Assembly: GCA_963575745.1 (NCBI GenBank)
Contig: CAUYUJ010016477.1
Coordinates: forward strand, 32,501-96,500
Length of the DNA stretch: 64,000 nucleotides
Reading direction: 5' to 3'
Source: Prorocentrum cordatum
Lineage: Eukaryota; Sar; Dinophyceae; Prorocentrales; Prorocentraceae
The notes beneath the pieces were generated by a model. That model was not told the origin of the DNA, made no database searches, and saw only the letters and a program-made list of their open reading frames with translations. How positions within the stretch are numbered: position 1 is the stretch's first letter; every line of letters begins with the position of its first letter. A program made the translations under genes and the position numbers. This document shows positions 15,540 through 52,101 of this stretch, piece by piece.

Positions 15540-15850
15540 GCGGGGTCCCGGGTGCGCCGGGTGTGCCGGGTGTGCCGGGTGCGGTCGGCGCCGGGTGTCC
15601 CGGGTGCATTCGGCGCCGGGTGCCCGCGGCCGCCGGGTGTGCCGGGTGTGCCGGGTGCGCTCGGCGCCGGGTGCGCTGGGTGTCCCGGGTGCACTCGGCG
15701 CCGGGTGCTGGGCCGCCGGGTGTGCCGGGTGCGCCGGGTGCACTCGGCGCCGGGTGCGCTCGGTGCCGGGTGCGCCGGGTGTCCTGGATGCTCTCGGCGC
15801 CGGGTGCCTTCGGTGCGCCGGGCGTTGTGCTGGGTGCCCCGGGTCTGCCA
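15540..15850. repeat. GTGCCGGGT 9-bp satellite, array 1
   Basis: About 310 bp of GTGCCGGGT/GCGCCGGGT/GTCCCGGGT units with longer units containing TCGGCGCCGGGT. Larger arrays of the same unit lie at 44.1-45.0 and 60.5-61.5 kb. CCTCTGGG sits just left of the array, as at 60518. Confidence 0.9.
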
Positions 15851-16660: not shown

Positions 16661-17447
16661 AAGTGCCAGCGCAGCCATTGAGACGGGCGAGGACTTCCCC
16701 ATCGGTAACCACCATGGCGGCTGCATCAGCTGTGCCACACCACCTTGACGATTTCGGTTACCGATTGCGCCTTCACTGTTTCTTATGTTGTGGGAGGGCG
16801 GGTGGGAATCACGGTGGGGATGTGCATGCCATGCTTGACGCGCTCGAACTGGCAACCTTGATCGTCCTTTTACTCCTGGTCCTGATCCTCTCTTGCGTCC
16901 TGCGCGAAGCCAGTATGCCTAGCTGCCCAATACAGGTGCGCTGAGACCGCAGGGTATAGATCGGGTACCAAAACTGCCAAGGAGCGCCCGCATCTAAGCG
17001 GTCGGGGGCCAAAACTGCCGGAGGGAGCGCCCCGCGCCCTAGCATCCCGACGGACACCTGGCGCAGGCGTGGGCGGCTCGATTCACCCATGCTCTCATTC
17101 GACTACGCCCCACCACTCAGACTCTACCACTCTCCCGGGGCGCGGCTGGGGCGCGCCCGCGCCGGTGCTGGCGTAGCGACTTCGGTTTAGCAAAGTAGAG
17201 TGCCTTATCACACTTATAGATGTAGCTGTCTCAGATGCAAATGTACTTACCGAAGCCGCAACTATACTTACACGGTGTCCCTAACCATACTTACACAACA
17301 ATTTATAATCGACATATAACCATCTTATAACTTTCATAACTTTCATAACTTCTTCAATTTCCATGCCCCTCCCCTCCCCTCCCCCCCTGTGGTTCGGCAG
17401 TGAGCCAGTAGGGCGGCGAGAAGAAAGGAGGGGGGAAGGAGGAGGAC
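16661..17447. other. No recognisable gene; AT-rich patch
   Basis: The patch 17200-17345 is unusually A/T-rich, with repeated CTTATAACTTTCATAAC. A purine-rich stretch follows. Nothing coding. Confidence 0.45.
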
Positions 17448-17643
17448 AGCGATGCATTCGCTAACGCATTCCTGGGTATGAGCGATAAATTCGCTATGTG
17501 GTTCTCTGAGCGATCAATTCGCTGTGCAATTATCTGAGCGATCAATTCGCTATAAGCGATGAATTCGCTATGTGGATCTCTGAGCGATCAATTCGCTGTG
17601 CAATTATCTGAGCGATCAATTCGCTATAAGCGATGAATTCGCT
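17448..17643. repeat. Palindrome cluster P1 (8 copies)
   Basis: Copies of the 15-bp repeat AGCGA-N5-TCGCT start at 17448, 17481, 17509, 17537, 17555, 17583, 17611 and 17629. The main forms are AGCGATCAATTCGCT and AGCGATGAATTCGCT. Spacing is 28, 28 and 18 bp in a repeated pattern. The cluster lies about 100 bp upstream of the first gene of the plus-strand series. Confidence 0.95.
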
Positions 17644-17744
17644 ATGAGGCCCCTGCCCATGCCGCCCCCCCTGCGCCATCATTCGAAGCCGTTTGCATAC
17701 GCAAGCCCGCGCGTTTTTTTTTGGGTGGGTGGGGCCGCATAGCC

Positions 17745-18326
17745 ATGGCTGCCCAGCGCTTGCGCGACCAAGTCGAGGCCGTCGGGCGATTGCTCGAGGC
17801 AGTGCAAGGGCAGCCCTGTTTCGATGCGGTGGCGGCCGCGCAGGAAAGGATGCTCGTGCAGGCTTTCGGGAGCGCGAGGCTGCAGCCCACGCAGGTGACA
17901 ACCCTCTCGTCTCTCGTCGCAGCGCAACCCTGGTCCGAGGTTTCCAAGGGGAGGCTGTTGGAGAAGCTCGGCAGCATCGTGGCTTCTGGCAGCGCCGTGG
18001 GTTTGCGAATGGCTCAGCAGGATTATGAGTGCATCTTCGGGTACCTGACAGCGGGCTCGTGGCACCAGTTGGCGCGGACCGACGTGCCCGAGGAAGCGAA
18101 GCTCAACGTGCTGGTTGATGTTGCGATTAGCTTAGGTCTTCGCAACCCGACCGAAGGCACGTATCAAATGTTGACGGCGATGTGGCGCATGGCCGTGGAC
18201 GGAGCCGAGACCGCGAAGAATTTGGCGTGGGCTGCAAAGTACTCGTACCTCCAGCAGACCAAGCGCGTGTTCAATCGCCAGGCTGCAGCTGAAATTGCGG
18301 CCCTCGTCGAGGGGAGGGGGACCTAG
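17745..18326 (+). CDS. Hypothetical helical protein (cassette A, 5' part)
   Basis: I do not recognise the family. The 193-codon frame from ATG 17745 is rich in Ala, Leu and charged residues and reads as a compact, mostly helical soluble domain (for example QVEAVGRLLEAVQG, YQMLTAMWRMAVDGAETAKN). There is no signal peptide or membrane segment. The start is the first ATG after palindrome cluster P1. The bases around it, CCGCATAGCCATGGCTGCCC, weakly recall a spliced leader. The frame closes just inside a polypurine GGAGG run, after which a second coding block follows on the same strand. This is probably exon 1 of a two-exon gene, with the GGAGG run as intron, but the splice sites were not resolved. 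Confidence 0.6.
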   Translation: MAAQRLRDQVEAVGRLLEAVQGQPCFDAVAAAQERMLVQAFGSARLQPTQVTTLSSLVAAQPWSEVSKGRLLEKLGSIVASGSAVGLRMAQQDYECIFGYLTAGSWHQLARTDVPEEAKLNVLVDVAISLGLRNPTEGTYQMLTAMWRMAVDGAETAKNLAWAAKYSYLQQTKRVFNRQAAAEIAALVEGRGT

Positions 18327-18381
18327 GAGAAGGGAGGGTGGGGGAGGAGGAGGAGGAGGGGGAGGAGGAGGAGGAGGCAGT

Positions 18382-19197
18382 TTCCCCTGGCCGCAATTTC
18401 ACCCACGAAGGTTTCGAGGCTTCCTGCGCCCCCCGTTCGGCTGACCGAGCTGCCTGCGTCCCCCTCGACGTTCTGCGAGGACCACCCTGGCTTCTTCAAG
18501 CAAGTGTATGGCGACGAGTTGCCAGCTGCATGCCCCGCGCCAGAAGCCGCGATTCGCTCCGCCCAGGCTACGTACCCATGCCGCAACACAAAGCAGCAGG
18601 CCACGGGGGCACAGATGATGAGCGCCTCGGCGTCGCAGCCCGACGTTTTGCAGATGATGCAGCTCATGTTCGATAACTTGCGGCGGGCGGACGTCGGCGC
18701 TCAGACGGGCCCTTTGAACCTCAAGATCCTGGGAGGCGGCGCGAAACGCGCCGCGGCCTCGGCGTTCGCAGCCGTGGAGGACGCTGCCCCGAGTTCTCTT
18801 CCATCTTCCGCCTCAGAAGGGGCACCGTCGCCAGCAGCGCCAACGCCACCGTCGCCAGGGACGCCTGCAGCAGCCAGCGTCGCCAAAAAGAACGTGACTC
18901 CCCCCCAGAAGGAGGACGTCGCCTCGGTCACCGAGGACATCCTGCACGGACTCGTGGCCAAGGAGAAGGGGGGGGGGCCCGAAGCCGAAGGCAAAGGGGA
19001 AGGCAAAGGGGAAGGCGAAAGCAAAGGCGACGAAGGCTGGGGCTAAGACGACGGGCGAAGGCCACGGGAAGGGCGTCACCGTGTCACCCCTGTTCAAGCC
19101 CATCAAGAAGCTCGGGTGTTCGAAGTGTCGTTACGCCAAAAAGGGGTGCTCGAGTTGCAAAGAGCGGCTCAGGATTTCAAAGCTGCTGGGTAAGTAG
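18382..19197 (+). CDS. Cys-cluster (CSKCRYAKKGCSSC) protein, frameshifted (cassette A, 3' part)
   Basis: Coding composition starts right after GAGGAGGCAG (a plausible 3' splice site) with QFPLAAISPTKVSRLPAP and continues through FCEDHPGFFKQVYGDELP. It ends in a Pro/Ala/Ser-rich linker. At a run of ten G (18968-18977) the frame is lost. One base fewer would give a lysine-rich stretch (PKPKAKGKAKGKAKAKA), then KLGCSKCRYAKKGCSSCKE and a stop at 19195-19197. The final Cys block (C-x2-C-x6-C-x2-C) looks like a small zinc-binding knuckle, and the basic stretch suggests a nuclear or nucleic-acid-binding protein. Function unknown. The frameshift lies in a homopolymer, so it may be a sequencing error. 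A poly-A run and palindrome cluster P2 follow. Confidence 0.6.
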
Positions 19198-19479
19198 CTC
19201 ATAATGTGTGTAGGTTTCCTGAGGCGCTCTCGGCCGCGCTGGGTCCGCCACGCACTTTGCCAGATGTATTTCGGCCTGGGCCGTGCCACACGCCGCGCGC
19301 TCATAGTCATGCTACGGTGTTTCGGACAGAGCGTCCAATGCATTTCGCTACCGCGCTTCTGTATATGGGGCCCTGGAGAGCGCATCCTAGCGTGTGGGTA
19401 AGCCGCGCGAGCGCCCCAGGGAACCCTGCCGCTCACTTTTACTCTTGTGAGGGCGTGCCTTACCGTTGCCTGCGATGAC

Positions 19480-19521
19480 AAAAAAAAAACAGCGATCCAC
19501 TCGCTAAGCGATTCATTCGCT
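19480..19521 (+). repeat. Poly-A run plus palindrome cluster P2
   Basis: Ten A (19480-19489), then C, then AGCGATCCACTCGCT (19491-19505) and AGCGATTCATTCGCT (19507-19521). The same poly-A/C/AGCGAT junction occurs after cassette C. Confidence 0.85.
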
Positions 19522-20178
19522 TGGGGGTAGACAGGGTGAGAGGGGTGAGAGGGGAGAGTGATGGACCGCTGACTTGGAGAGGGGTAGGAGGGGTGAGAGG
19601 GGTGAGAGGGGTGAGAGGGGAGAGGGAAGAGAGGAGGGTGAGAGGGGAGAGTAATGGATGAGGCCTCGACCCCTCAAGTGCAAAATAAAGACAAAATATA
19701 AAAGATCGTAAGAAAAGATATAAAAGACATAAAAGAGGAAACGAAGAAATAGAAAATAAAAAAAAGAAAAGAAAGAAAAAACAAAAAAATAACAGATACG
19801 CGGATAAAATAGATAAAAACATAAAAGATAAAACAACCGCCAAACCGACCAACCCCCCCCCCCACGACTTCACAAAAAGAATATCAAGGGTTCTTCCTTC
19901 CTTCACACACCCTCCTCCCGCATGCCCCACCACTCCCACCCCAACCCTTCCACCCCACCCCTACTTCCATCCCCCCCCATCCCCCCCCCCCATACCCCCT
20001 CCCCACCATACCACCCCATCCCTCCACCTCCCTCCACCCACCACGCACACCCCCGCCCCCTCCCCACCCTCTACCCTCCATCCCCCCCTCCCCCAACCCC
20101 CTATTACTCCCCCCAGCGCACGCTCCTACACCCAGCCCCTCTACCCCCCCTCCCACCGCCAACCCCCAACCCTGCGTC
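19522..20178. repeat. Low-complexity G-rich, A-rich then C-rich spacer
   Basis: GAGAGGGGTGAGAGG units (19530-19660) are followed by A-rich sequence (19680-19840), then nearly pure C/A/T (19900-20160). No gene. Confidence 0.85.
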
Positions 20179-20259
20179 AGCGATGCATTCGCTTTCCTCC
20201 GACCTCCCATCGAAGCAGCGCTCCCTTCACCTCAACCCTGTGTCAGCGATGCATTCGCT
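20179..20259. repeat. Palindrome cluster P3 (2 copies)
   Basis: AGCGATGCATTCGCT at 20179-20193 and 20245-20259, each preceded by CCCTGTGTC or CCCTGCGTC and followed by T. They precede the SL relict of cassette C. Confidence 0.95.
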
Positions 20260-20289
20260 TGCTCGCGGAGCGCCCCTGCGACCGTGCCT

Positions 20290-20326
20290 TCGCATTGCCA
20301 TTTCGGCTCAAGGCCCCGGCTCAAGG
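20290..20326 (+). other. Spliced-leader relict, stacked
   Basis: TCGCATTGCCATTTCGGCTC-AAG followed by GCCCCGGCTCAAG. The first part aligns to the dinoflagellate SL (consensus CCGTAGCCATTTTGGCT-CAAG) with few differences. The second repeats its 3' end, as expected when a reinserted SL-bearing cDNA is trans-spliced again. The ATG of cassette C follows 24 bp later. Together with the 3' poly-A at 21090 this marks a processed retrogene. Confidence 0.75.
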
Positions 20327-20349
20327 CCTCGGCGGCCGCGCCAGCGACA

Positions 20350-21086
20350 ATGGCCGACGACGCGGAGAGGTCACTGCAATCGTTGCTGTCTTTGGGCGAC
20401 CCCTTTGCGCAGTTCCAGGATGGGGCCCAGGAGAGCGGGGGCGCTGGCAACGAATCGCGCATGAATCCAACCTCAAACTCAGAGCCCCGCATGAGTCCCA
20501 TCTCAGACTCAGAGTCCGAGGGGCGGAGCGCCGCCGACAAGGGCAAAGGCTGCAAGGGCGGGTGGCGCGCCAGCGGCAAGGGCGAGCCCGACAGCGACGG
20601 CGACGCGGAGAACCCGAGGCGCAAGCAAGCGAGGATGACCTTCTTGTGGAACACCCCGCAGGCTCTCAAGGACGAGGAGGACATGGCAAAGCAGTTCGCC
20701 GTGCCATGGGCCATGCGCGGCCCGCCTCCTCCAAGCGAGGGGGGGGCCGACGATGTGGCGCGGCAACAGATGGTCAGAAGGCGAGCGGCGTTGGAAGAAA
20801 CGCGGTGGCACGTCCAGGGAGTTCTTCGAGGAGAAGTACGGCTACGGCGGCCGGGGCTGGCAAGCAGGCCACGCGCCGAAGCGGCCTTCGGACTACAAGG
20901 GCATGGGCGGCGGCAAGGGCGCCTTCCAGGAGCGGCAAAGGCCAGGAGCAGAGCAAGGGCGGCGCCTTCTCCGAGCGCAGCAAGGGCGGCAAGGACGGCA
21001 AGGGCAGCAAGGGCAGCGCCCCCGAAGGCACGCGGGCGCCGCGGGCGCAGGCCGCCTGGGACCCTCATGACCTCGAGGACATTTGA
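20350..21086 (+). CDS. Hypothetical Gly/Lys-rich protein, processed retrogene (cassette C)
   Basis: Starts MADDAERSLQSLLSLGDPFA at the first ATG after the SL relict. It has a Ser/acidic linker with two similar repeats (RMNPTSNSEP, RMSPISDSES). A conserved-looking core follows (FLWNTPQALKDEEDMAKQFA), then a Gly/Tyr/Lys-rich tail (EEKYGYGGRGW, ERSKGGKDGKGSKG), resembling disordered RNA-binding tails. The composition switches frame twice, near 20819 (one G too many in GGG) and near 20932, and reading ends LEDI-stop at 21086. Twenty A follow within 4 bases. The intact family product would be about 245 aa. Function unknown. The short tail between stop and poly-A shows a copied mRNA, and the frameshifts suggest a decaying copy or sequencing errors. 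Confidence 0.6.
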
Positions 21087-21089
21087 GAG

Positions 21090-21152
21090 AAAAAAAAAAA
21101 AAAAAAAAACAGCGATTGACTGGCCATGCAGTTCACAAGCGATTGAATCGCT
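21090..21152 (+). repeat. Poly-A(20) plus palindrome cluster P4
   Basis: Twenty A (21090-21109), C, then a degenerate palindrome (21111-) and AGCGATTGAATCGCT (21138-21152). The poly-A directly abuts the spacer repeat. Confidence 0.9.
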
Positions 21153-21189
21153 ATGCAGGTCACCTCTCTCGTCTATCTCTCCTCTCTTC

Positions 21190-21490
21190 GTCGCGATCCA
21201 GGCCAAAATCCCCACGCCGCCCTCCGCCGCGATCCAGGCCAGAATCTCCGCGGCGATCCACGCCACGGGCGCCGTTCGTAGGTCAAAATCTCCGCAGCGA
21301 CCCAGGCCAAAATCTCTGGTCTCAGTTTTTGGGCGGGCCCTTTAGGAATTTACTGACGCCAAAAATGGGTCCCAGATTTGGCGGTCCCTTCGTGGGATGT
21401 TTTTGACGCAATGAAGGCCCCCAGATTTGGCGAGCCCCTCGTGGGAAGTTACTGGCGCAAAGAAGTGCCCCAGATGCGGCGGGCCGTTCT
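21190..21490. repeat. Two short tandem minisatellites
   Basis: CGATCCAGGCCAAAATCYCC units (about 21192-21320) are followed by three units of about 50-58 bp containing CCCAGATTTGGCG-CCC-TCGTGGGA (about 21345-21480). Non-coding spacer between cassettes C and D. Confidence 0.8.
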
Positions 21491-21587
21491 CTCCCCCCTT
21501 CGGTCGCCTCGGCTTGCTCGACCTCCTCGCTCAGCCCCCATTCGATGCGTCGGCATCCTTGCACCCCTGCCCGTTGCATTTCCTCTC

Positions 21588-21603
21588 AGCGATTGCATTC
21601 GCT
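21588..21603. repeat. Palindrome P5 (1 copy)
   Basis: AGCGATTGCATTCGCT, one base longer than the consensus. GGGCTCA (21644-21650) and then the ATG of cassette D follow. Confidence 0.8.
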
Positions 21604-21712
21604 CCATGGGGCGGGCCGCGCGAGTAGTCATCTGCGTTCGTCTGGGCTCAATCTGTTTAGAACGGTTTTCTTTCTCAGCGGCCAAGGGCCAAGGCGCGCT
21701 CGGCGGGCAGCG

Positions 21713-22258
21713 ATGGATGGGCCGTCGGAGGCCGCGAGTTCCAGCGGGAGTGAATGGCTGTGGCGCGGCTTTTGCCCTCGCGGCGATTGCAAGAAAGCTG
21801 GCTCGTGCATCTTCTCGGACCCTGACAGGGACATCGTGAAGGAAAAGGTGGCGAACCACTTGTGGTGTTCTACCTACCACAACGAGGACAACGCCCTCGA
21901 GTGGGAGGCGGCGTTGCAGGAGGCAGACAATGACGCGTTCATTGTCTACGAGCTGGGCACGCAGAAGAGCAAGAAGCGCCCCGCGCCATCCGTGGAACCG
22001 CAGCCAGGGCGGGCCGTTCAACAGCGGTCTTCAGGACCAGTCGGCCAGTGCAAGTCGAAGACAGTGGTGACGCGGGACATCACGGTGCGCAAGGGCGAGC
22101 TGCAGCAGGTCATGGATTGCCTTGACAGGTCTCTGACTGCGACGGAGCACGCCGCGACCATCGCACGCAGCGCAGCGAAGGCGTTCGAGGACAGCGCTGC
22201 TGCGATCTCGGGCGCCAAGAAGACGCTCGAGAGCATCTGCATGCGCCACGTGGGCTGA
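21713..22258 (+). CDS. Hypothetical Cys-containing protein, intact (cassette D)
   Basis: A complete 181-aa frame, the cleanest of the plus-strand series. Residues of about 14-55 contain WLWRGFCPRGDCKKAGSCIF and then HLWCSTYHNED, a Cys/His set that could bind zinc in the manner of a CCCH-like finger; this is inference. The C-terminal 70 residues form an amphipathic helical region (VRKGELQQVMDCLDRSLTAT, AAKAFEDSAAAISGAKKTLE) typical of coiled-coil oligomerisation. There is no signal or membrane segment. The ATG at 21713 is the first after palindrome P5 and a GGGCTCA motif. Palindrome cluster P6 follows about 95 bp after the stop. No family recognised. Confidence 0.65.
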   Translation: MDGPSEAASSSGSEWLWRGFCPRGDCKKAGSCIFSDPDRDIVKEKVANHLWCSTYHNEDNALEWEAALQEADNDAFIVYELGTQKSKKRPAPSVEPQPGRAVQQRSSGPVGQCKSKTVVTRDITVRKGELQQVMDCLDRSLTATEHAATIARSAAKAFEDSAAAISGAKKTLESICMRHVG

Positions 22259-22354
22259 GCCACTCCAAGACGCGGCCTGCTGCCCTGCGCTCGGCCTGTC
22301 CCGGGAGCCCGCCGATTCTTTGAACAAATAATAGCACCCTCGTGACCCAACTTG

Positions 22355-22408
22355 AGCGATCGAATCGCTGGCTCTTCCTCGAAACCCCATTTGAGCGATC
22401 GAATCGCT
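22355..22408. repeat. Palindrome cluster P6 (2 copies)
   Basis: AGCGATCGAATCGCT at 22355-22369 and 22394-22408, each followed by GGCTC. Located just downstream of cassette D. Confidence 0.95.
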
Positions 22409-22595
22409 GGCTCCTCTTCAGCCCGCCCATGCGCGACCCGCCAAGATGAGAGGGGAGAGGAGGAGGGGGGGGGAGGAGAAAGTAAAGAGGAGGGTTGAGA
22501 AAGGATGAGGATGAAGAAGAGTAGGAGGAGGAGAAGGAGGAGAAAAACCGAGAAGGACAGATCAGAGAGAAAAGGACAAGGCCCGAGAGGGAGCG

Positions 22596-22625
22596 TCAAT
22601 ATTCGTTACAATTTTGACGCTCGTT
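22596..22625. repeat. Short hairpin GAGCGTCAA / TTTGACGCTC
   Basis: Related in sequence to the perfect palindrome at 59220-59249 (both start AGCGTCAATATT), so it may be a small dispersed palindromic repeat. Confidence 0.6.
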
Positions 22626-22675
22626 TCTGGTGTGGTTTCGGATACCGCATGCCCACCCACCCTCCAAGCCCTACG

Positions 22676-22872
22676 GCGATTGGTGGTCCAACGGTGGCCC
22701 AACGGTGGTCCAACGTGGGTGGTCCAACAGAAGGTGGTCCAACGTGGTCCAACGGTGGTCCAACGGTGGTCCAACGGTGGTCCAACAGGGGTCCAACGCG
22801 TTGGACCACCGTGGTCCAACGGTGGTCCAACGGGGGTCCAACGGGGGTGGTCCAACGGTGGTCCAACGTGAC
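22676..22872. repeat. GGTGGTCCAAC minisatellite
   Basis: About 17 units of GGTGGTCCAAC(G) of 10-12 bp, with one inverted patch near 22800. It is open in several frames (WSNGGPT on one strand, VGPPLDHRWT on the other), but it is a repeat, not a gene. Confidence 0.9.
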
Positions 22873-22966
22873 GTCGCCATCCGTGGTTTGCGCTTTTCTG
22901 TTTGGATGGGGGCGGGGGGGGCGAGAGAGCGAGGATCGCTGAGACCTTGTTTCGCTTGCTGAGGTT

Positions 22967-23065
22967 AGCGATACACTCGCTCAGACAAGCGATTCACTCG
23001 CTCAGACTAGCGATACACTCGCTCAGACACGCGATTCACTCGCTCAGACAAGCGATTCACTCGCT
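22967..23065. repeat. Palindrome cluster P7 (5 copies, 21-bp period)
   Basis: AGCGATTCACTCGCT-CAGACA repeated exactly every 21 bp from 22967 to 23065, with small changes. GGGCTCA (23117-23123) and the ATG of cassette E follow. Confidence 0.95.
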
Positions 23066-23104
23066 CAGACGCGCTCCCGAGCTCACGACCCCACTGCGCC
23101 TTGC

Positions 23105-23126
23105 TGCAGCCACTCTGGGCTCAAAG
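23105..23126 (+). other. Possible spliced-leader relict
   Basis: GCAGCCACTCTGGGCTCAAAG resembles the SL 3' two-thirds (GTAGCCATTTTGGCTCAAG) at most positions, 50 bp before the cassette E start codon. Confidence 0.5.
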
Positions 23127-23175
23127 CAGCGCTTCCTGCTCTCGGGTCGCTCGGGGGCGCTCGCGCAACCGAGGT

Positions 23176-24798
23176 ATGGACGAGCCTGCGGCGCGCCTGC
23201 TGCAGCAGATGTCGGCTGCCGCCCCGCCGCGCGTCTCCGCCCCGCCCAAGCGCGTGGAGGTCAAGAAGCAGCGCTCGCTGTTCGAGTTCTCAGTCGTGGC
23301 TTCGGCGGCCCGCGCGGGGCAGCTGGACGACGTCAAACAGGAACCCCCCGAGGAGCCAGAGGAAACCCCCGAGGGAGAGCCAGTGACACTTGCCGAAGAG
23401 CTAGGGATGGCCCCAGAGGATGCCGCCGAAGTGGCCGCTCACGGCGCCAGCCGCGCAGGCAAGGCCAAGCGCCCTCCCAAGAAGGCCAGGGTCAGGGCAG
23501 CCAAGGCAGTGGCAGGCCTTGCGCCCGAGGAGGACGACTGGTCCTGGGAGTGGTGGCCCGAACCCGAACACCTCGACGAAGGAGGCGACCGCGGCGGCGC
23601 GGCTGCGCCCGCAGTTGAGGAGAAGAAGGGGGGCAAGAAGAGGAGGGCCTCCGAAGGCGCCGAAGGCTGGCCAGCCGACGCCGACGGCGACGGCGCCGAC
23701 GCAGACGAGGCCGGGACTGGCGGAGACGACGGCGCCGAGGGCGCCGACTACGGCGTCAGCGGCGAGGACGGCGAGAAGGCCAAGAAAAAGAAGAAGGGGA
23801 ATAACAAGGGGAAGCGCTCCAAGACCGCCAAAAAGAAACGCAAGAAACCGGCCGCGCCGAGGAGCTCGGAGGTCCCGACAGAACCCGCCGAGGTCCAGCC
23901 ACCGTGCGCCGCTGCCCCTGATCAGACGGCTATCGACGCGGTGCCGCGCTTCGATCGCAACCCCGTTTGCACCAAGTGCAAGTAGCCCGTGGAGCCGCTC
24001 GCAGCAAGGATTGTAGGCAAGAAAAGGAATGTTTGGCAGTGCTCAACGTGCAGTTCGCGGCACACTCAGCTCCACAGGATTTTCGGAGGATGGCCGCCAC
24101 AATCCTTCAAGTCGCTTTCACAGGAAGAGAAAGATACTTTTTGGAACGACGTCAAGGAGGCGAACGGGAAGGCAGAGGTCGAGAAGATTGCGGTGGAAAC
24201 GTTCACGAGGGTATACCGCGAGAGCCGCGCCTCAGGCAGGCAGGGGAAAGACCTCCCACTCAGCGTCTACAAGAAGAAGGGCTACTCCGCAAAGAGGATT
24301 AAGAGGCTGTGCAAAGACAAGAAACAAGATGATGTCCTCGGCACGCTCTACTGCGTGAACATTGATTACAAGGACGACAAAAGCGTCGAGGAAGAGGTCC
24401 GCCAGTCCCTGACCGCCGCAAAGGAGCGCACCGCCAGCCCGCAGCAGCACCAAGGCAAGAACAAAGGCAAAGGCAAGGGAAAGGAGCAACTCGCGCCAAC
24501 CTCAGCCACCAAGAAGATGATGAGCGACGCCGTCAAGATCCTGGCCAAGGTGAGCCCGCTCGCTTTCAAGGCAAAAGGGTTGTTGAACAACCCCAAGGCA
24601 AGCAAGCTGCACAAGGGCCACAGCAAGGCCATGGCGTGGCACATCAAGGACCTCGACGCTCTCGCGGCCGCGGCCCAGGATACCCTGTCCAAGAACGCCG
24701 TGCTGTCCATTCAGCTTGCGACGGTGAAGGAGAAGGCAGACGCGGCTGAGAAGAAGTGCGCGCAGGCGGAGACAGCGCTCAGCACTTTCGACGACTGA
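23176..24798 (+). CDS. Zinc-ribbon-like C-x2-C / C-x2-C protein with an in-frame TAG (cassette E)
   Basis: One continuous 540-codon frame, interrupted only by TAG at 23983-23985 (codon 270). The N-terminal half is acidic/basic low complexity with an EEKKGGKKRRAS-type lysine-rich region suggesting a nuclear location. The stop falls between VCTKCK (Cys265, Cys268) and VWQCSTCSSRH (Cys289, Cys292), the middle of an apparent four-Cys zinc ribbon. Downstream, RIFGGWPPQSFKSLSQEEKD, FWNDV, DLPLSVYKKKGYSAKRIKRL and LGTLYCVNIDY form a globular domain that I recall from many uncharacterised dinoflagellate proteins. A Lys/Gly linker and a C-terminal coiled coil (LATVKEKADAAEKKCAQAET) follow. The intact frame and composition on both sides suggest a single substitution, readthrough or RNA editing rather than old decay. 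Seven A precede palindrome cluster P8 after the stop. Confidence 0.7.
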
Positions 24799-24895
24799 GG
24801 CTCCCCTGCGGGAGGAGAGGGGAAGTGCAGCAACGAGCATGCTGCGCGAGTGACCGCCTCTTGACATCTCTCGGGCTGAGATGCGGCGTCGGAGA

Positions 24896-25136
24896 AAAAA
24901 ATCATTCATTCCGTTAGCGATTCACTCGCTCATTTCGTTAGCGATTCAATCGCTCATTTCGTTAGCGATTCACTCGCGGATTTCGTTAGCGATTCAATCG
25001 CTCATTTCGTTAGCGGTTCAATCGCTCATTTCGTTAGCGATTCACTCGCTGATTTCGTTAGCGATTCAATCGCTCATTTCGTTAGCGATTCACTCGCTAT
25101 GAAGCGGCGCCCTCTCTCGGAAGCGATTGAATCGCT
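24896..25136. repeat. A-run plus palindrome cluster P8 (9 copies, 24-bp period)
   Basis: Seven A, then eight copies of AGCGATTCAMTCGCT-CATTTCGTT every 24 bp (24916-25098), and a ninth palindrome AGCGATTGAATCGCT at 25122-25136. This is the most regular spacer array of the series. Confidence 0.95.
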
Positions 25137-25229
25137 CGGCGCGACGGCTTGCACCCTTCACCTGCTTTACATTCCGCGCTTGGGCTCAGGAGTGCCCGAG
25201 TCCCGCGCCCCAGCGCCCGCGTGGCCATC

Positions 25230-27425
25230 ATGGGTAAGCAAGTTCTCGAGAAGCGCCGCCGCCTTGGGAGGCTGGTGACCATTCCAGGCGCGACGTGCGC
25301 TGGTTTGTGCGAGGTCCTCCGCCGACTGAGGCAAGCGCCCATCGAAGAGGAGGTCTCTGCGCATGAGGCCAAGGCCGCCGCGAAGATGGAGTACGATAGA
25401 GAGATGTCGTGTTCTCTGGAAATGCCGCTGTGCGACGGCGGCTCCTTTGAGTGGCACATTGCAAGGACGTCGCGGGGCGCGCCAAGCAGCGCGTCTTTCT
25501 TGGGCCGCAAAAAATCAACAACGGCATCTGGATTTTTTTCTGGTGCCAGTTTTCTCCTCTCCCCCTGCCCCTTCCCCCCCTCCACCCATTCCCCCCTTCC
25601 CCCTTCCCCCCCCCCCAGGGCGGGAGGGGGTGGTGCAGGGGGTTCGCGGCGCGCCTGCTTGGCGCATCCCGCTGAGGCCTGCCCGCTTGGTTCAACGGTT
25701 AGTCGAGGTGTCCCCAGCGCTGAAGCGCATGTTCGCGGCCGCGCCTATCACCCCAGCCAGGCCGTGGAACGTGATCCTTGCGCACGACGAGGTCACGCCT
25801 GGAGCTGTGCTGCGACCGCATAACCGCAGGAAGTTCGTTGCATTTTACATTTCGTTTCTAGAATTCAAGCATGCCCTTCGGCACGATTGCTGTTGGTTCC
25901 CCCTGGGCGTGATCAGGTCGGCACAAGTGGAGAAAATTCGCGGTGGCCTCTCGGGCACGATCAAGTCGTTGCTGCGTCGCTTGCTTCTTGAGGACGGCAA
26001 TCTCGTGGATGGCGTGGCCTTGCCGCTACAGGGCGGGCCGACAATGTTCTTCGCGAAATTTGCCGTGCACTTGGGAGACGAGGTCGCTTTGTCCAGGGGC
26101 CTCGGCGTGAAAGGATCTGCAGGGATCCGACCGTGTCTGAAGTGCGCCAACGTGCTCAAGAAAGGCTCAGGCATTGCTGGCGCTGGCGCCGCGCCCAATC
26201 GGTTGGTGGACATCACATGCAGGGACCGCAGCGCATTCATTTGTAATTCTGACGAGGCCGTATGGGGAGCCCACGACGAGTTGACGCACTTACAAGGGAC
26301 AATATCGAAAGCCGCATTTGTGCGCCACGAGAAAGCACACGGCATCAATTTTAATCCTGATGGGTTGTTGGCGGACGCAGACCTCCGAGGGCAGGTCGGC
26401 CCTGTTTCGTCGCTCCATTTTGATTGGATGCATGTATATTTGTGCAATGGTGTTGCGTCCCAGGAAATGTTTTGCTTCATGTCGGCATGCCAGGCCATTC
26501 CTGCTCTGAGGGACATCTATCCGAAGTTGGAACGGTACTGCCAGGCAGACTGGTCTTTCCCCCAGCAACACCGACGCAAGTGTCGGGGGGCCCACGTTGT
26601 TTTCTGCAAGGCCAGGGAGAACGCATCCAAGGAGCATTGGCGAAGCAGCGCCTCAGAGTTGTTGTGCATTTACCCGCTGGTGCGGCATGTTGCTTGCATT
26701 GTTATCTTGCCGAATTTCGATGAGCTGCGCGACGAAGTTGCCTCCCTCTGCCATTGTTTCGCTGTAATTGACAAAATTCAACGGGCGAAGGCGGGCGACG
26801 TCGATGCCTCGGCCCTCGGAGCTGCAGTTGATCGCCACGCGGACGCACATGAAAAAGCATACGGGGCCGACAATTGGAAACCAAAGTTTCATTTGGCGAC
26901 GCACATTCCCGAGCAAGTGGAGAAATTCGACGTTGTGTTGGATTGCTTCGTTGTTGAGAGGTCGCACCTTCTGCCGAACATGATTCTGGACAACCAAGAT
27001 ATACTGAAAGGCTTCGAGAAAGCTGCAATTTCTCGCGTGCTGTTGGCGCGCCTGCAGGAGCTCGAAAGTTTCGACGAGCGCCCAGGGCTCAGGGGGGCGA
27101 TGCGGAGTTGTCGCCCCTGCTGGCTGAAGCAGTCGGCGGCGACGTCGTCCTTTCATCCAGCGCTGCTTTCAAAGGCTTGCTTGTTTGGGCAGGCGACGTG
27201 GTGCGCATGCAGAACAATTTTCTATGCGTCGCAGCTCTGGGCCAACGGGGGGACGATCTATTCAATCTTGGGCACGAGTGCGTCGTGATCGAGAAGCGGA
27301 CGCCGAACGCGTCAGTCCTGCGGAAGGACGGCGAATTGCTTCTTGCGTGTTGGAGCGGCGAATCGGTTGAGATGTGCCACGCTTGGTCGGAGCTCGCCTC
27401 TGGCGACATTCTTGCTTTGCACTGA
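25230..27425 (+). CDS. DDE-type transposase-like protein, one intron and one frameshift (cassette F)
   Basis: Exon 1 runs from ATG 25230 (MGKQVLEKRRRLGRLV) to about 25475 (GGSFEWHIARTS). A C-rich intron of about 180 bp follows, and exon 2 resumes before RLVEVSPALKRMFAAAP. Exon 2 contains ILAHDEVTPGAVLRPHNRRK (candidate first acidic residue), a CLKC pair, LHFDWMHVYLCNGV (D-MH motif as in Tnp2/CACTA-like transposases) and KPKFHLATHIPEQ...DCFVVERSH (candidate last acidic residue). After a six-G run (27092-27097) one extra G would restore the frame SPLLAEAVGGDVVLSSSAAF to the stop at 27425. The family is heavily amplified in dinoflagellates, as I recall it; its superfamily is unassigned here. About 640-670 aa if intact. 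The transposase role is inference from motif order. Confidence 0.6.
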
Positions 27426-27449
27426 GCGGAAAACAACATCTGCCAGGAC

Positions 27450-27552
27450 AGCGATTGAATCGCTCATCAAAAAAACATTAGCGATTGAATCGCTCATCCA
27501 CCTCCACTCCGCATCTTTCTTCGGTCTGCGATCCTGCAGCGATTGAATCGCT
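27450..27552. repeat. Palindrome cluster P9 (3 copies)
   Basis: AGCGATTGAATCGCT at 27450-27464, 27480-27494 and 27538-27552, each followed by CATC. The first lies 25 bp after the transposase-like stop codon. Last member of the family in the window. Confidence 0.95.
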
Positions 27553-27639
27553 CATCCTCCTCGCAATCCGCCTCTTTCTTCGGTCTGCGATCCGAAGCCT
27601 CAGCAGCCACGCGGCGTCGGGGGGATGGGGGTACGCGGG

Positions 27640-27965
27640 GGAGGAGGGGGGAGAGGGGAATGATAATGTGCGATATGTACAATTCGAGGGTTGCAAAGGA
27701 GCCCAAATTTAACTTATTTCAGACAGTTGCAAGTAGTTTACAAGTTATGTGTAACTTTGATAAGTTCTTTGGCCTGCAACTTACAACTCGCAGTTACGAT
27801 AGTCACATCCCTGGGTAACTTGGGCAGCTGCAATTACAAGTGGTAAACAATGCAACCATCTATGCTAACATCAAGTTGGGTAGTTGCATGTTAGTTCTTC
27901 AGATGACCTTAGCTATGTATCAACTTACACCATGCTGTAACCAAAGCTGGCCAGCTTCAAGTTTT
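27640..27965. other. AT-rich spacer with TTGCAA/ACTTG words
   Basis: Markedly lower GC than the surroundings, with recurring GTTGCAAGT, TTACAAGT and AACTTG(G) in both orientations. It separates the plus-strand series from the next minus-strand gene, so it lies at a point of strand switch. Confidence 0.5.
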
Positions 27966-27979
27966 CTAACCCAAAGTCG

Positions 27980-29064
27980 CTACGCCAGTGCCGCGCCGCG
28001 GCCTGCCGCGCCGGCGGGCGTCGGCGCTGCGCCGCTGGCCGTCGCCGCCGCGTCGGCCCCTCCCGCGCCGCCGGCAATTCCTCCTGCTACTCCGCCCGCC
28101 GCCGCCGTCGCGCCCGGGCCGCGCGGGGCCCCCGCCTGCCCGCCGGGCACCGCAGCCCCCCGCTGCCGCGCGGCTCGCGGAGCGCTGGCGGAGGCAGGCG
28201 GAGCTCTCCTCTTCCTGGTCTCCTTTGCCCCAATCGCACTCGTGTGCGCCTGCGAGGAAACGCCGCGCAGCTTCATCAGGCGGTTGTGGAATGGCAGGTG
28301 GAGGTCGCGGCGGTCGGTCGGCGGCAGCTTCAAGTGGATCCGCGGGGCGCCCGGCTGGTCCTCCGCGCTCGAGCCGTCGTCGTACGTGCCAATGTGATAC
28401 TGGCTGAGGCCCGCCTGCATGACCGCCTTCCAATGGTGCTGCCGGAGGGCGACTGTTCTCCCGCGGACGCCTGGCTCCTGGCTCGGCAGGGTCTTCCGGA
28501 TGGAGCCACACACATCCGAACAGAAGACAATGGGTTCTCCTCGCAAAATTGTTCTCTTCATAATCTCCCTGTCGGTGAGGAACACGTCGCCGTGCTCCTG
28601 CATCTGCACCGAGGCGCCGTCCTGAGGGAAGCCGATCAACGACGCGCAGTTCCCATCCCTTTCACACCCCTTCTGAGTCCATGGAAGCTTTTTCAAGCTG
28701 GGCGAGGCCCCTCCACCCTGGCTCGAAGCCCCCTTGCCCTTGCCCACGCCGACCCCACCCCGCGCAAGCGCCATCTCTGGTCCTCGCCGTACCCCTCATC
28801 CATGGAGGGGACCTCCGGGTCGCCTGGCACCAGGAAATGGGCGTCTGCGTCCGCGCCGCCCCCCTCGGCCGCAGCCGCCGCCGCCGGCGCCCTCGCGGCG
28901 TCTCCCGCGCCGTCGTTGGCCACGCTCGCCAGCGGCGGCCCCTCCTCCTCCGCGGCCGACGCGCCGCCGTGGCTGGCTTGATCGCCCAGCCCCTCGAACT
29001 CGCGGTCGCCCTCGCCATCGACGCCGCCGCCCGCTGAGCCGCCGCCGACGTCGGAACCTGCCAT
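27980..29064 (-). CDS. Hypothetical protein, frameshifted
   Basis: From ATG 29064 the frame begins MAGSDVGGGSAGGG, with an acidic, alanine-rich, probably disordered segment ending PSMDEGYGEDQ near 28790. A second frame takes over at about 28770 and carries normal composition: LPWTQKGCERDGNCASLIGF, RGEPIVFCSDVCGSIRKTL, and ALRQHHWKAVMQAGLSQYHI. It ends in an Ala/Gly/Pro-rich tail at 27980. The shift lies in a C-rich stretch (28750-28770). The Cys pairs might bind metal, but I recognise no family. No SL-like motif or palindrome is seen next to it. Confidence 0.45.
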
Positions 29065-44111: not shown

Positions 44112-44959
44112 TGCTGGTTCCGGTTGTGCCGGGCGCGCCGGGTGTGCCGGGTGGGGTGCGATGGGTGTGCAGTGCGTGCCGGGTGCGCCGGGTGCGCCGA
44201 GCGTCCCAGGTGCGCCGCGTGCCCTGGGCGTGCTGGGTGCGCCGGGTGCGCCGGGTGCCCCAAATGTGCCGGGTGTCCCCGGATTTCCGGGTGCGCCCGG
44301 TGTCCCGGGTCTCCCGGGTGTGCCGGGTGTCCCGGGTGGACCGGGTGTCCCTGGTCTTCACGGGTGTGCCGGGTGTCCCGGGTGTGCCCCAGGTGTGCCG
44401 GGTGTGCCGGGTGTGCCGGGTGCGTTCGGCGCCGGGTGCGCCGGGTGTGCTGGGTGCATTCGGCGCCGGGTGCGCCGGGTGTCCCGGGTGCACTCGGAGC
44501 CGGGTGCCCGGCCGCCGGGTGTGCCGGGTGTGCCGGGTGCGTTCGGCGCCGGGTGCGCCAGGTGTGCCGGGTGCACTCGGCGCCGTGCCGGGTGCACTCG
44601 GCGCCGGGTGCGCCGGGTGTCCCGGGTGCGCTCGGCGCCGGGAGCTCGGCTGCCGGGTGTGCCGGGTGTGCCGGGTGCATTCGGCGCCGGGTGCCGGGTG
44701 TGCCGGGTGCTTTCGGCGCCGGGTGCGCCGGGTGTCCCGGGTGCGCCGGGTGTCCCGGGTGTGTGTGCTGGGTGTGCCGGGTGCGCCAGGTGTCCGGGTG
44801 TTCCCGGCACGCCGGGTGTGCTGGGTGTGCCGGGTGTCCCGGGTGTCCCGAGTGTCCCGGGTGTGCCGGGTGCGCCGGGTGTCCCAATGGCACGCTCGCT
44901 GCGTGCTCTGGGCGGGTGTGCTGGCTGCCCCGGGAGCCCCGGGTGTGCCGGGTGTCCTG
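44112..44959. repeat. GTGCCGGGT 9-bp satellite, array 2
   Basis: Same unit as the arrays at 15.5 and 60.5 kb, here abutting the 8-bp satellite. Longer units contain TCGGCGCCGGGT. The right boundary is CCCAGAGGGACAAAACTAC, which reappears inverted at the left edge of array 3. Confidence 0.95.
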
Positions 44960-45182: not shown

Positions 45183-45534
45183 GCAGGAATGACGGAGCGA
45201 AGAGTAGACGGAGGAGGACGGGAGAGAAAGAGGGGCAGCTGCCGTCCCCGAGTCGAACCGACCCTTCCTTCCAAGGGTGCGCTCTGGCCAGGATTTCGAA
45301 GCGTGCCCAGCCGCGGCTGCGAGAACTCCCCAGGAAACCAACGCAAAACGGAACCTCCCCCGACTCGACCCCACTCCCGACTTGTTAGGGGTGAAGCGCA
45401 CATTTCACTTCTCGCACTTCGAGCCTCACACTGCACTCGCTGAGTAACACTGCGCAGAAGCCGTGAATGATCACGCATCTCCGCGCACAGTCGCACCAGA
45501 ACGGACAGCCATGCGAATCAGCGGTACTGTAGTT

Positions 45535-45930
45535 GCCCCATTCCCTGTCTCTTGTCGCGTTTCTGTCTCGTTTCTGTCACGTTTCTGTTTTCTGTCACGT
45601 TTTTGTCGCCGTTATGCCGCGTTGAGGTGCAGTCGGGGCGCTGAAGAAGGAACCCTTTTCGTTGGGGAAGGGGCTCGGTGTTCCTTGATTGTTTAACAGT
45701 TTGCCTTAGGTATTCCTGAGGTTTTCCATGGGGCATCGATGTTTAACGTATGAGAAACAGGCGCCTCGCTCCTTATTTAGGGTTCCTTAGGTCAACGCCC
45801 CGACTGTATTATGAATCGTTTCTGTTGCGTGTTATGGTCCCTGCAATCTTTCTGTAGTGTTTCTGTTTTCTGTCGCGTTTCTGTTGCATTTCTGTTTTCT
45901 GTCACGTTTATGTTTTGTGTCTGCCCCTTT
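45535..45930. repeat. Spacer repeat S (TTTCTGTTTTCTGTCGCG), cluster 1
   Basis: CGTTTCTGTCACGTTTCTGT-type units at 45543-45610 and 45838-45912. Read on the minus strand (CAGAAACGTGACAGAAAACA) it lies just downstream of the transposase-like gene ending at 46024. Elsewhere the same family lies upstream or downstream of other minus-strand genes. Confidence 0.85.
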
Positions 45931-46023
45931 GCTGTAAAATTCGCTATGGGCGTGACCGCGGGCACCCGAGCCCGAGCTCCTGGGTTAAAGGGAGCAGCAT
46001 TCACAAACGACAAAATACTGCGC

Positions 46024-48377: not shown

Positions 48378-48433
48378 CGCCTTCGCTGAGACGTTGCCTA
48401 ATGCCACCACCGAGCGTCATAATCTAAATCAGC

Positions 48434-48452
48434 CTTGATCCAAAAGCTGCCG
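48434..48452 (-). other. Possible spliced-leader relict
   Basis: On the minus strand CGGCAGCTTTTGGATCAAG matches the SL 3' part (TTTTGGCTCAAG) with one change. It is about 60 bp upstream of the transposase-like coding start and in the right orientation. Confidence 0.5.
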
Positions 48453-48534
48453 AGCGCAGAGCGCCATCGCGCGTCGGCAGCAGCAAGAGAAGAGTGAGCA
48501 TGTACAACTGGGCGATTACTGCTCACCGTCAAAC

Positions 48535-49050
48535 TATTCCTATGTTTCTGTCGTCTGTCTGTTGTCTGTAGCGTTTCTGTCTGGTTTATTTTGCCTGACG
48601 GATGTTTGTATTCGGTTGTTGGCATGTTTGATGTGTGAGTTATGTGTTATGTATCGTGTATGTTTGTTGTCTTGTATAATTTGGTATGTTTTTGTTCTGT
48701 ATGTTATATGTGTTATGTCGTGTTTCTATTTGCTGTAGTGTTTGTTTCTGTTGGGCTTATGTTGTGTTTGTGTGTTTGTTTCTTGTGTGTATGTCGCTTT
48801 TTATATTGGGTTATGTAGCGAATATCGTGGGTTTCTGTCGTGTTTCTGCTTTCTGTCGTGCTTCTGTCGCACGCCTACTCTTCGTTGTCTGGGAGGCGAG
48901 CGAGGGCAAATATATAATCTATTTCCCAGACCCCGAGTGCAGCGTGACCACTGACAAGTTGAAACCCCTAAATGCATGCGTGCACCGCCGTCGGATTTCT
49001 GTAGCTTTTTCTGTTTTCTGCAACGTTTCTGTCGGGTTTCTGGCGGGCCT
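48535..49050. repeat. Spacer repeat S, cluster 2
   Basis: TTTCTGTCG / TGTTTCTGTCGTGTTTCTGC-type units with T/G-rich filler (TGTTATG, TTTGTTGT). It lies upstream of the transposase-like minus-strand gene, mirroring cluster 1 downstream of it. Confidence 0.8.
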
Positions 49051-49489
49051 CCCTGGGCCCAGAATTCAGGGTCGGGCACTGTGAAATGACGGATCCAAAA
49101 TCACAGGGCGCGGCGGTGCATGCAGGCGAATCACAGTCGGGCAAAACCGCTCTGGCCCCCAGCGGGCGCAGGCATGCCCTGACCTAGGAGCTAGCTCCCG
49201 CGGAGCCCGTCGGCGTCTTGAAGCTGTCGAGGTTGGTCGCCTTCCACTTCGCGAACACATCCTGGCGGGCAGGGGCGGGGCGACGACGGGGCGCGACGTG
49301 GGGCGGGGGAATCAGCCCAGCAACCGAGTTTTTAGACCATCATGTTTGACTAAACAGGGGGGGGGGACGCCAGATAATTCCAAAGAAAGCCCACCCCTCA
49401 CGTGCCCCCGTGAAGGGCCCCCCGCGAGGCCCCCCTGGAAAGCGAAACGGGGCAGGAGGAGGAAGAGGAGGAGGAGGCGGAAGAGGAGG
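49051..49489. other. No recognisable gene
   Basis: GC-rich spacer ending in GGAGGAAGAGG purine repeats. Nothing supported. Confidence 0.4.
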
Positions 49490-49529
49490 CTCCGTAGCGA
49501 TTTCGGCTCAAGTCGTTTTAGCTCAAGTA
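49490..49529 (+). other. Spliced-leader relict, stacked, plus strand
   Basis: TCCGTAGCGATTTCGGCTC-AAG is followed by TCGTTTTAGCTCAAG. The first part matches the SL start to end with only a few changes, including its rarely preserved 5' CCGTAGC; the second repeats its 3' half. No plus-strand gene follows: the next coding sequence is the 3' end of a minus-strand gene. It therefore marks an orphaned or decayed retrocopy, or a retrocopy junction. Confidence 0.7.
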
Positions 49530-49559
49530 GGGGGGGGTGATGAGAAGGGCCAGGAAATT

Positions 49560-50408: not shown

Positions 50409-50409
50409 T

Positions 50410-51040: not shown

Positions 51041-51046
51041 TTTGGC

Positions 51047-51891: not shown

Positions 51892-52019
51892 GGCTTCGTC
51901 GCTGCAAGACGCAGCCCGATCAGAATGCAACGCAATCGAAAGTGCCACAGCGGCGCCGCGCTGGAGGAGGGGGAGGGAGGACGAGAGGACGGTGGCGGAG
52001 CATGAGAATGGAGCGGCGA

Positions 52020-52069: not shown

Positions 52070-52101
<32 letters not shown>

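What the first reader, a model, noticed from the sequence alone, without database searches (positions are those of the whole stretch)
17448..27552. Gene cassettes bounded by a 15-bp palindrome-like repeat
At least 33 copies of AGCGA-N5-TCGCT lie in nine clusters, and only between, never inside, five consecutive plus-strand genes or gene pairs. The order is the same each time: palindrome cluster, then 41-52 bp, then a (G)GGCTCA motif, then 40-63 bp, then ATG, CDS, often a poly-A run, and the next palindrome cluster (cassettes C, D, E and F; A is looser). Clusters differ in period (21, 24, 28/18 bp), so the palindrome is conserved while its spacing is not. This could be an insertion-site, end-processing, terminator or insulator sequence for retroposed genes, or a promoter element of a unidirectional cluster. 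I know of no described system with this layout.
Basis: partly seen in the sequence, partly recalled or inferred. Interest (0 to 1): 0.9.

Follow-up and report, generated by a model that had tools for sequence, protein, structure and literature searches.

The report
Dinoflagellate transposon with palindrome-bracketed genes
The strange "gene cassettes" are the inside of a 10.8-kb jumping gene of a marine dinoflagellate; each of its five genes is fenced at both ends by copies of the same 15-letter palindrome, and relatives of the element that were sampled keep the palindrome beside their genes while the letters around it change.

Summary
In detail: 29 exact AGCGA-N5-TCGCT copies (0.10 expected), all between five plus-strand genes. 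It is not host gene punctuation. The block, window 17168-27988, is a DNA transposon of Prorocentrum cordatum, with terminal inverted repeats (CTGGCGTAGCGACTT...), 2-bp target duplications (14 of 15 copies read) and an empty site for one insertion. The terminal repeat occurs 111 times genome-wide (control 0); among the 100 places listed I count 37 inward-facing pairs 9.95-10.99 kb apart. The palindrome's excess over its genome control (4631 vs 3178) is about what 50 copies would add. "GGGCTCA" looks like a spliced-leader relic, significant for two genes of five. Palindromes bracket every gene: 5' clusters end 91-111 bp before the ATG, 3' clusters start 25-297 bp after the stop. In six diverged relatives (transposase candidate 56-71% identical) exact (four) or one-mismatch (two) palindromes lie near the end of that gene; one (57%) keeps array-53 bp-GGCTCA-ATG with another linker and period. 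Best reading: selected start/stop elements of the transposon's own genes, probably bound by an element-encoded protein (inferred). A second repeated unit in the window has another motif around at least one gene.

The parts
17168..27988 (+). DNA transposon copy, 10,821 bp (most other paired ends are about 10.3 kb apart)
   Evidence: Same block in unrelated flanks at C2224, C2237, C2558, C4225, and its left part at C664; inward-facing terminal repeats at C15628:49668 and 60488 = window 17168 and 27988
17168..17194 (+). left terminal inverted repeat CTGGCGTAGCGACTTCGGTTTAGCAAA
27962..27988 (-). right terminal inverted repeat CTGGCGTAGCGACTTTGGGTTAGAAAA
17166..17167 (.). target site duplication TG (left)
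   Evidence: 2-bp duplication in 14 of 15 copies read at both ends
27989..27990 (.). target site duplication TG (right)
17448..17643 (+). palindrome cluster 5' of gene A (8 exact copies)
   Evidence: relative C15238 has 6 exact copies in the corresponding piece
17745..19194 (+). gene A (two reading frames, 17745-18326 and about 18504-19194; exon structure unresolved)
   Evidence: no Pfam or NCBIfam hit (117, 118)
19480..19489 (+). A10 run ending one base before the 3' palindromes of A
19491..19521 (+). palindrome cluster 3' of A (2 exact)
19679..20157 (.). 479-bp insertion private to this copy
   Evidence: absent from 5 of 5 copies whose alignment spans the site, including C3313, which shares the flanks
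20179..20259 (+). palindrome cluster 5' of C (2 exact)
20297..20312 (+). DinoSL relic GCCATTTCGGCTCAAG; GGCTCA 45 bp after the palindrome
   Evidence: 15 of 16 aligned bases, shuffle p 0.001
20350..21086 (+). gene C (frame broken in this copy)
   Evidence: open 245 aa in copy C4225
21111..21152 (+). palindrome cluster 3' of C (1 exact, 1 with two mismatches), one base after an A20 run
   Evidence: the decayed copy is exact in the other copies read
21588..21603 (+). palindrome 5' of D, 6-base spacer
21713..22258 (+). gene D, 181 aa
   Evidence: 97% identical protein P0015
22355..22408 (+). palindrome cluster 3' of D (2 exact)
22967..23065 (+). palindrome array 5' of E (4 exact, 1 one-mismatch), 21-bp period
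   Evidence: relative C15238 has 5 exact + 1 one-mismatch at the corresponding place
23108..23124 (+). DinoSL relic of E, AGCCACTCTGGGCTCAA; GGCTCA 52 bp after the palindrome
   Evidence: shuffle p 0.004
23176..24798 (+). gene E (in-frame stop in this copy)
   Evidence: open 540 aa in copy C4225; zinc-ribbon-like matches below cut-off
24916..25098 (+). palindrome array 3' of E (6 exact, 2 one-mismatch), 24-bp period
   Evidence: rebuilt with another unit in C15238
25122..25136 (+). palindrome 5' of F
   Evidence: kept in C15238
25230..27425 (+). gene F, transposase candidate, one intron (about 25448-25680), frame broken near 27086
   Evidence: 97% to NCBI P. cordatum protein P0001; 36 genome matches at 97-100% over aa 74-656 with no stop inside
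27450..27552 (+). palindrome cluster 3' of F (3 exact)
   Evidence: exact (4) or one-mismatch (2) palindromes near the end of F in 6 of 6 diverged relatives read

Best explanation
Shown: window 17168-27988 is one copy of a five-gene DNA transposon with terminal inverted repeats that makes 2-bp target duplications. Shown in the window: all five genes are bracketed by AGCGATNNANTCGCT-type palindromes at set distances from ATG and stop. Shown in the relatives sampled: palindromes persist near gene F (and A, E in one relative) while linkers and array periods change. Inferred: the palindrome is a selected binding site that marks the start and end of each of the element's own transcription units. 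A sequence-specific factor, most likely encoded by the element (E, or A/D, which have cysteine clusters), binds the 5' cluster to place initiation just upstream of the SL-relic/trans-splice region, and binds the 3' cluster to end transcription and shield the next gene, by the logic of TTF-I sites at both ends of rDNA units. Each gene would then be a self-contained, coordinately controlled unit.
For: Transposon: and the empty site. Bracketing: 10 of 10 gene ends; the outermost clusters have no palindromes beyond them in the window, so genes, not spacers, are bracketed. Conservation: the 3' flank of F has palindromes in 6 of 6 relatives at 56-71% protein identity, exact in 4, only one-mismatch copies in 2. 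The 5' flank of F in C16928 (57%) has 6 exact palindromes, partly in a 21-bp array with another linker, then 53 bp, GGCTCAAG, ATG; with palindromes masked that flank is not significantly like the window's (p 0.13). In C15238 the arms are 143/148 identical against 437/509 for linkers, p 1.2e-4. Element-private: genome-wide excess over control 1453, about 29 x 50 copies; all 100 listed palindrome pairs (of 1182) lie on six contigs carrying the block. T at 6 and A at 9 hold in all 29 exact copies, so asymmetric copies all point with transcription.
Against: No binding, RNA-end or expression data; gene ends are read from frames only. Among young copies the core is no more conserved than linkers (27/1680 vs 53/3183): expected for copies that evolve neutrally, but no support. 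Array homogenisation could keep palindromes alike without function, and the arms-versus-linker test treats sites as independent. Only flanks of A, E and F were compared in relatives, not those of C and D. In relative C725 the 5' palindrome is one decayed copy. A general test for any sequence shared by 5' and 3' flanks was significant for A, E and F but not for C and D. SL-relic status is significant only for C and E of five genes. The 3' flanks of C16928 and the window are alike outside the palindromes too (p 0.003). Which protein would bind is a guess: no Pfam or NCBIfam domain above cut-off.
Confidence: 0.58

Rival explanations
1. The palindromes act at the RNA level: hairpins in a polycistronic transcript mark where poly(A) addition and spliced-leader trans-splicing separate the mRNAs.
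For: Each of eight palindromes folded alone forms a 5-6 bp stem of -4.4 to -5.3 kcal/mol, and 4 of 9 clusters fold better than shuffles by z below -2. Orientation follows the sense strand. In A and C the palindromes start one base after an A10/A20 run.
Against: 5 of 9 clusters have z between -1.7 and +0.3. No two-sided compensated arm changes were noticed; in an unbiased scan for 6-bp inverted arms this sequence is the commonest by far (10, next 4). A review read in passages says polycistronic transcription now seems limited (PMC5029490).
Confidence: 0.2
2. The palindromes are transposase-binding (sub-terminal) repeats for cut-and-paste movement, as in CACTA elements, and only incidentally lie between genes.
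For: Outer clusters lie 280 bp and 436 bp from the element ends; CACTA elements carry closely spaced sub-terminal repeats (PMC8978399, passage).
Against: 8 of 10 clusters are internal, and positions track ATG and stop rather than the ends.
Confidence: 0.12
3. Neutral minisatellite: tandem arrays that grow by slippage in non-coding gaps of a transposon; the palindrome only promotes slippage.
For: Arrays differ in period and copy number between clusters, one was rebuilt in C15238, and young copies show no extra constraint on the palindrome.
Against: The same 10 arm bases persist with other linkers at 57% protein identity and at matching distances.
Confidence: 0.1

Closest known systems
CACTA (En/Spm) and related DDE DNA transposons
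   Same: Terminal inverted repeats, short target duplication, more than one gene, short repeats inside the ends; candidate transposase F has invariant D, D, CxxC and DWxH columns that recall this group (recalled, not tested).
   Different: 2-bp not 3-bp duplication; ends CTGGCG not CACTA; no Pfam match; five genes; repeats sit at every gene end.
Dinoflagellate retrogenes with DinoSL relics (PMC6050394, PMC12014239, passages)
   Same: GGCTCA of an SL-relic-like sequence 45-68 bp before the ATG of C-F; A-runs at the gene end in A and C.
   Different: The genes travel as parts of an inverted-repeat transposon, and palindromes lie outside the relic.
TTF-I (TTF1) sites of rDNA (PMC11358750, passages); Reb1 at both ends is recalled
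   Same: Short motif on both sides of each transcription unit, orientation-dependent.
   Different: Function here is not shown; RNA polymerase I genes there, a multi-gene transposon here.
13-nt intergenic motif CGTGAACGCAGTG of Lingulodinium tandem genes (PMC5029490, passages)
   Same: Proposed promoter motif between tandem dinoflagellate genes.
   Different: Other sequence, not palindromic, not in a transposon; reported as not detected in the P. cordatum genome (PMC10449503, passage).
Introner elements (PMC10666404, passages)
   Same: Short inverted repeats, same species.
   Different: They are introns with an inverted repeat at each end; these are compact palindromes between genes.

Membership tests
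TIR (class II) DNA transposon | terminal inverted repeats shared by copies | tested here: met
   57 forward + 54 reverse genome matches up to 2 mismatches, control 0
TIR (class II) DNA transposon | target site duplication | tested here: met
   2 bp in 14 of 15 copies read at both ends: 5 of 5 (read by eye), 9 of 10; C8702 does not match
TIR (class II) DNA transposon | empty site | tested here: met
   joined flanks of C2237 with one CA found exactly at C2319:25466-25492, and with 1, 3 and 3 mismatches at three more places, control 0; one insertion tested
TIR (class II) DNA transposon | DDE/D transposase | tested here: inconclusive
CACTA (En/Spm) | 3-bp target duplication | tested here: not met
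   3-bp match 0 of 10
CACTA (En/Spm) | termini CACTA (CACTG recalled as a variant) | tested here: not met
   element begins CTGGCG
DinoSL-tagged retrogene | DinoSL relic upstream of the ATG | tested here: inconclusive
   significant for 2 of 5 genes: C p 0.001, E p 0.004; A p 0.67, D p 0.25, F p 0.36
DinoSL-tagged retrogene | intron-poor processed copy of a parent gene | not tested
   no parent gene sought; F has an intron (against the window)
Host-wide gene-end element | strong enrichment across the genome | tested here: not met
   4631 vs control 3178 in 4.13 Gb; 15 of 15 fetched single hits have no second palindrome (up to one arm mismatch) in 3 kb
Host-wide gene-end element | position at host gene ends | not tested
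   single hits were not compared with gene annotation
TTF-I-type boundary site | protein binding that ends transcription | not testable with these tools
   only layout compared

The most novel reading that the evidence does not exclude
A family of large multi-gene DNA transposons in dinoflagellates carries its own punctuation code: a private palindrome, set before and after every gene and read by an element-encoded protein, gives each gene its own start and stop. The second repeated unit in the same window has another motif on both sides of at least one gene, so such private codes could be a general strategy of mobile elements in these genomes.
Probability: 0.35. Interest if true: 0.82.

Novelty: new variant of a known kind. 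Interest (0 to 1): 0.63.

Why it matters
Promoters and terminators are poorly known in dinoflagellates; the P. cordatum nucleus paper reports that neither proposed promoter type could be detected in its genome (PMC10449503, passage). An element with dozens of near-identical copies, a transposase candidate open in at least 36 matches, sharp ends and a short motif at every gene end gives a small, testable candidate for both, and possibly a natural vector. It also shows that a gene cluster with SL-relic-like leaders can be a single mobile unit, so some "dark" dinoflagellate genes may belong to transposons.

Tried and rejected
Target-site model for each gene (palindromes as duplications around single retrogenes): nearest 5' and 3' palindromes carry the same centre only in E and F of five genes, 41-52 bp separate palindrome and GGCTCA, and the block moves as a unit; rejected. 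Spread with linkers by duplication: no convincing linker similarity between clusters. Coding function: periods of 18 and 28 bp break frame and no cluster touches a CDS. Known RNA: no Rfam hit at gathering threshold. Other collections: palindrome pairs gave 0 viral contigs and 3 bacterial ones, taken as chance from their titles and not examined; relatives of F gave none in viral contigs. Literature: ten searches, several with capped listings (15 of 331 and 15 of 723 shown), listed no paper whose title or shown abstract describes such an element; passages of ten papers were read. Absence from print is not shown. Selection between young copies: pN/pS 0.74-1.85 for A1, D, E1, E2 and two parts of F, near neutral. 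In that call the A2 row (0.61) mixes frames because of the window's frame shift, and the F exon 1 row, with its "stops", was computed one base out of frame and is void; C3313 (same locus) is included in its totals. Ends of the second repeated unit were not found: homology to C21349 and C18595 fills the fetched pieces, past window 45204 and 59073.
Full report
OBSERVATION. The window holds 29 exact AGCGA-N5-TCGCT matches, all in 17448-27552, against 0.10 expected. One search adds three with one arm mismatch and the two-mismatch copy at 21111; one search adds one with a 6-base spacer. With 11 copies chosen by me, at least one per cluster except the 6-base-spacer copy, positions 1-6, 9 and 11-15 are invariant while the flanks carry little information; the arms were the selection criterion, so only positions 6 and 9 and the flanks are independent news. 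None of the clusters touches the five coding units as drawn from reading frames.

ORGANISM. Gene F is 97% identical to a P. cordatum protein, and gene D to a protein in an NCBI record. The window lies in a genome of 4.13 Gb in 21,875 contigs. P0001 lies on a 499,163-bp contig, the length of contig C8702, where aa 74-656 match at 100%. The published assembly is 4.15 Gb with 59.7% G+C (PMC10666404, passages); the window has 59.5%.

EACH GENE IS BRACKETED. The clusters come in pairs, one before and one after each gene. The 5' clusters end 91-111 bp before the ATG and the 3' clusters start 25-297 bp after the stop (F's ATG is 25230, one base before the script's value). Between A-C, C-D and D-E the two clusters are hundreds of bases apart; between E and F they nearly touch. 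The outermost clusters have nothing beyond them in the window, nor an exact copy in 10 kb further on either side (one single-mismatch match at L020:3223). GGCTCA resembles the end of the dinoflagellate spliced leader (sequence as in PMC6050394). Against shuffles the match is significant for C (p 0.001) and E (p 0.004) but not for A (0.67), D (0.25) or F (0.36). In A and C the 3' palindromes begin one base after an A10 or A20 run; the poly(A) site motif reported from Amphidinium is AAAAG/C (PMC2488372, passages). A general test for any sequence shared by the 5' and 3' flanks is significant for A, E and F, not for C and D, whose palindromes have different centres.

THE BLOCK IS A TRANSPOSON. A genome search for two palindromes in tandem found 543 forward and 639 reverse places, control 0; all 100 listed places lie on six contigs and repeat the window's order of clusters as far as listed. 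Aligning window 12000-33000 to copies shows that homology starts at about 17168 and stops at about 27988 in C2224, C2237, C2558 and C4225 (93.6-99.2% per aligned piece). C664 shows the left part only; its contig ends soon after. C3313 also shares the flanks and is the same locus or its haplotype, without the 479-bp insert of the window. The ends are inverted repeats beginning CTGGCGTAGCGACTT. The terminal repeat occurs 57 + 54 times, control 0; among the 100 places listed I count by eye 37 inward-facing pairs 9.95-10.99 kb apart and three at 7.6, 11.7 and 36.8 kb. Flanks carry a 2-bp duplication in 5 of 5 copies and 9 of 10 (TG eight times, CA three, TA two, AG one; C8702 none). The empty site of the C2237 insertion is present exactly at C2319, with three near matches elsewhere, so that flank is itself repeated. 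The genome-wide excess of single palindromes over control, 1453, equals about 29 x 50 copies, so this family may account for all of it (arithmetic, not a direct count).

STATE OF THE COPIES. F gives 86 matches; 36 of them span aa 74-656 at 97-100% identity with no stop inside, and C18543 has one stop; the rest are partial, more diverged or first-exon matches. The window's copy is decayed: E has an in-frame stop and C and F are frame-shifted, while intact copies exist. Between copies pN/pS is 0.74-1.85 for the gene parts read in a sound frame, near neutral (two rows set aside, see Tried and rejected). Palindrome cores differ as often as linkers (27/1680 vs 53/3183); 20 of the 27 are changes private to the window (C3313, the same locus, was left out). 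This is what copies decaying after insertion would show and neither supports nor denies a function.

DEEP CONSERVATION. One search also gave diverged relatives. Of eight that I noted, I fetched the region at the 3' end of F for six (C16928 57%, C725 56%, C6469 60%, C16906 64%, C5047 67%, C5224 69-71%); C16264 was not fetched, and C15238 was sampled in four pieces. All six have palindromes there: exact copies in C16928, C5047, C6469 and C5224, one-mismatch copies only in C16906 and C725. The end of the F frame is visible in the pieces of C16906, C725, C6469, C5224 and, without a stop, C16928; for C5047 its place was extrapolated from the match. Five of the six share a unit of about 36 bp not seen in the window; C16928 has different linkers again. 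The 5' flank of F was read in two. C16928 has six exact palindromes and one with a mismatch, several in a 21-bp array with linker ACCTTA, then 53 bp, GGCTCAAGG, and the ATG 80 bp after the last palindrome; C725 has only one decayed copy. With palindromes masked, the C16928 5' flank is not significantly similar to the window's (p 0.13); the 3' flank is (p 0.003), perhaps through purine-rich simple sequence, which I did not test. In C15238, where flanks are 77% (A5) and 84% (E5) identical, the array 3' of E is rebuilt from another unit while palindromes remain. Over A5, E5, F5 and F3 the arms are 143/148 identical and the linkers 437/509 (Fisher p 1.2e-4). That test treats sites as independent, leaves gaps out, and depends on alignments of tandem repeats.

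MECHANISM. Position, private distribution and conservation point to a sequence-specific cis element of the transposon's own genes. T at 6 and A at 9 hold in all 29 exact copies, so the asymmetric ones all point along transcription; in ten distinct palindromes of the relatives T6 holds in 7 and A9 in 8. A dyad with half-sites one helical turn apart suits a dimeric DNA-binding protein (inference). A site on both sides of a unit recalls TTF1 in rDNA, whose sites lie upstream and downstream of the coding region and are bound in an orientation-dependent way (PMC11358750, passages). An RNA hairpin role is the main rival: stems are possible but only 4 of 9 clusters fold clearly better than shuffles. 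I cannot separate the two without RNA ends.

A SECOND CASE. The motif ACAGAAACGNGACAGAAA occurs 46 times with up to 3 mismatches (0.09 expected), mostly at 45.5-58.7 kb. Gene M1 (56247-57842, minus) is flanked on both sides by it (shared flank score 34, largest shuffle 15.5), with a DinoSL relic of 17 of 17 aligned bases between array and ATG. In the same test M2, M4, M6 and M8 showed no significant shared flank, M3 only simple CCT sequence, and M5 and M7 short other matches (p 0.005 and 0.010), so the layout is shown for M1 alone. The region recurs at 99% on three contigs, 92% on one and 77% in five places, so it is another dispersed unit; its ends were not found.

STANDING. The transposon is certain for practical purposes; a selected role of the palindrome is likely; the start/stop role and an element-encoded reader are inference. 

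Noticed in passing
L004:1790-2913 (IMGVR_UViG_3300045993_001077): An AT-rich contig of the viral collection, giant-virus-like to my eye, carries two exact DinoSL copies; one heads a GC-richer stretch of about 950 bp. It looks like a processed dinoflagellate cDNA captured by a virus, or a chimeric contig.
   Followed up: no
window 45200-59070: Second dispersed unit with ACAGAAACGNGACAGAAA arrays, inverted at 58.56-58.67 kb.
   Followed up: partly
window 49492-49527: A tandem DinoSL relic pair (19/21 and 15/21) on the plus strand lies at the 3' end of a minus-strand reading frame, in the wrong orientation for it.
   Followed up: no
window 48225-48234: A10 run followed by cAGCG without a palindrome; three of the four A>=10 runs on the plus strand are followed by cAGCG.
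   Followed up: no
window 15548-15807 and 44120-44882: Similar CCGGGTG-type minisatellites in two places.
   Followed up: no
window 17168-27988 versus C3313:125687-136022: Same insertion site with and without the 479-bp insert at 19679-20157, which suggests that the insert is younger than the transposon insertion.
   Followed up: partly
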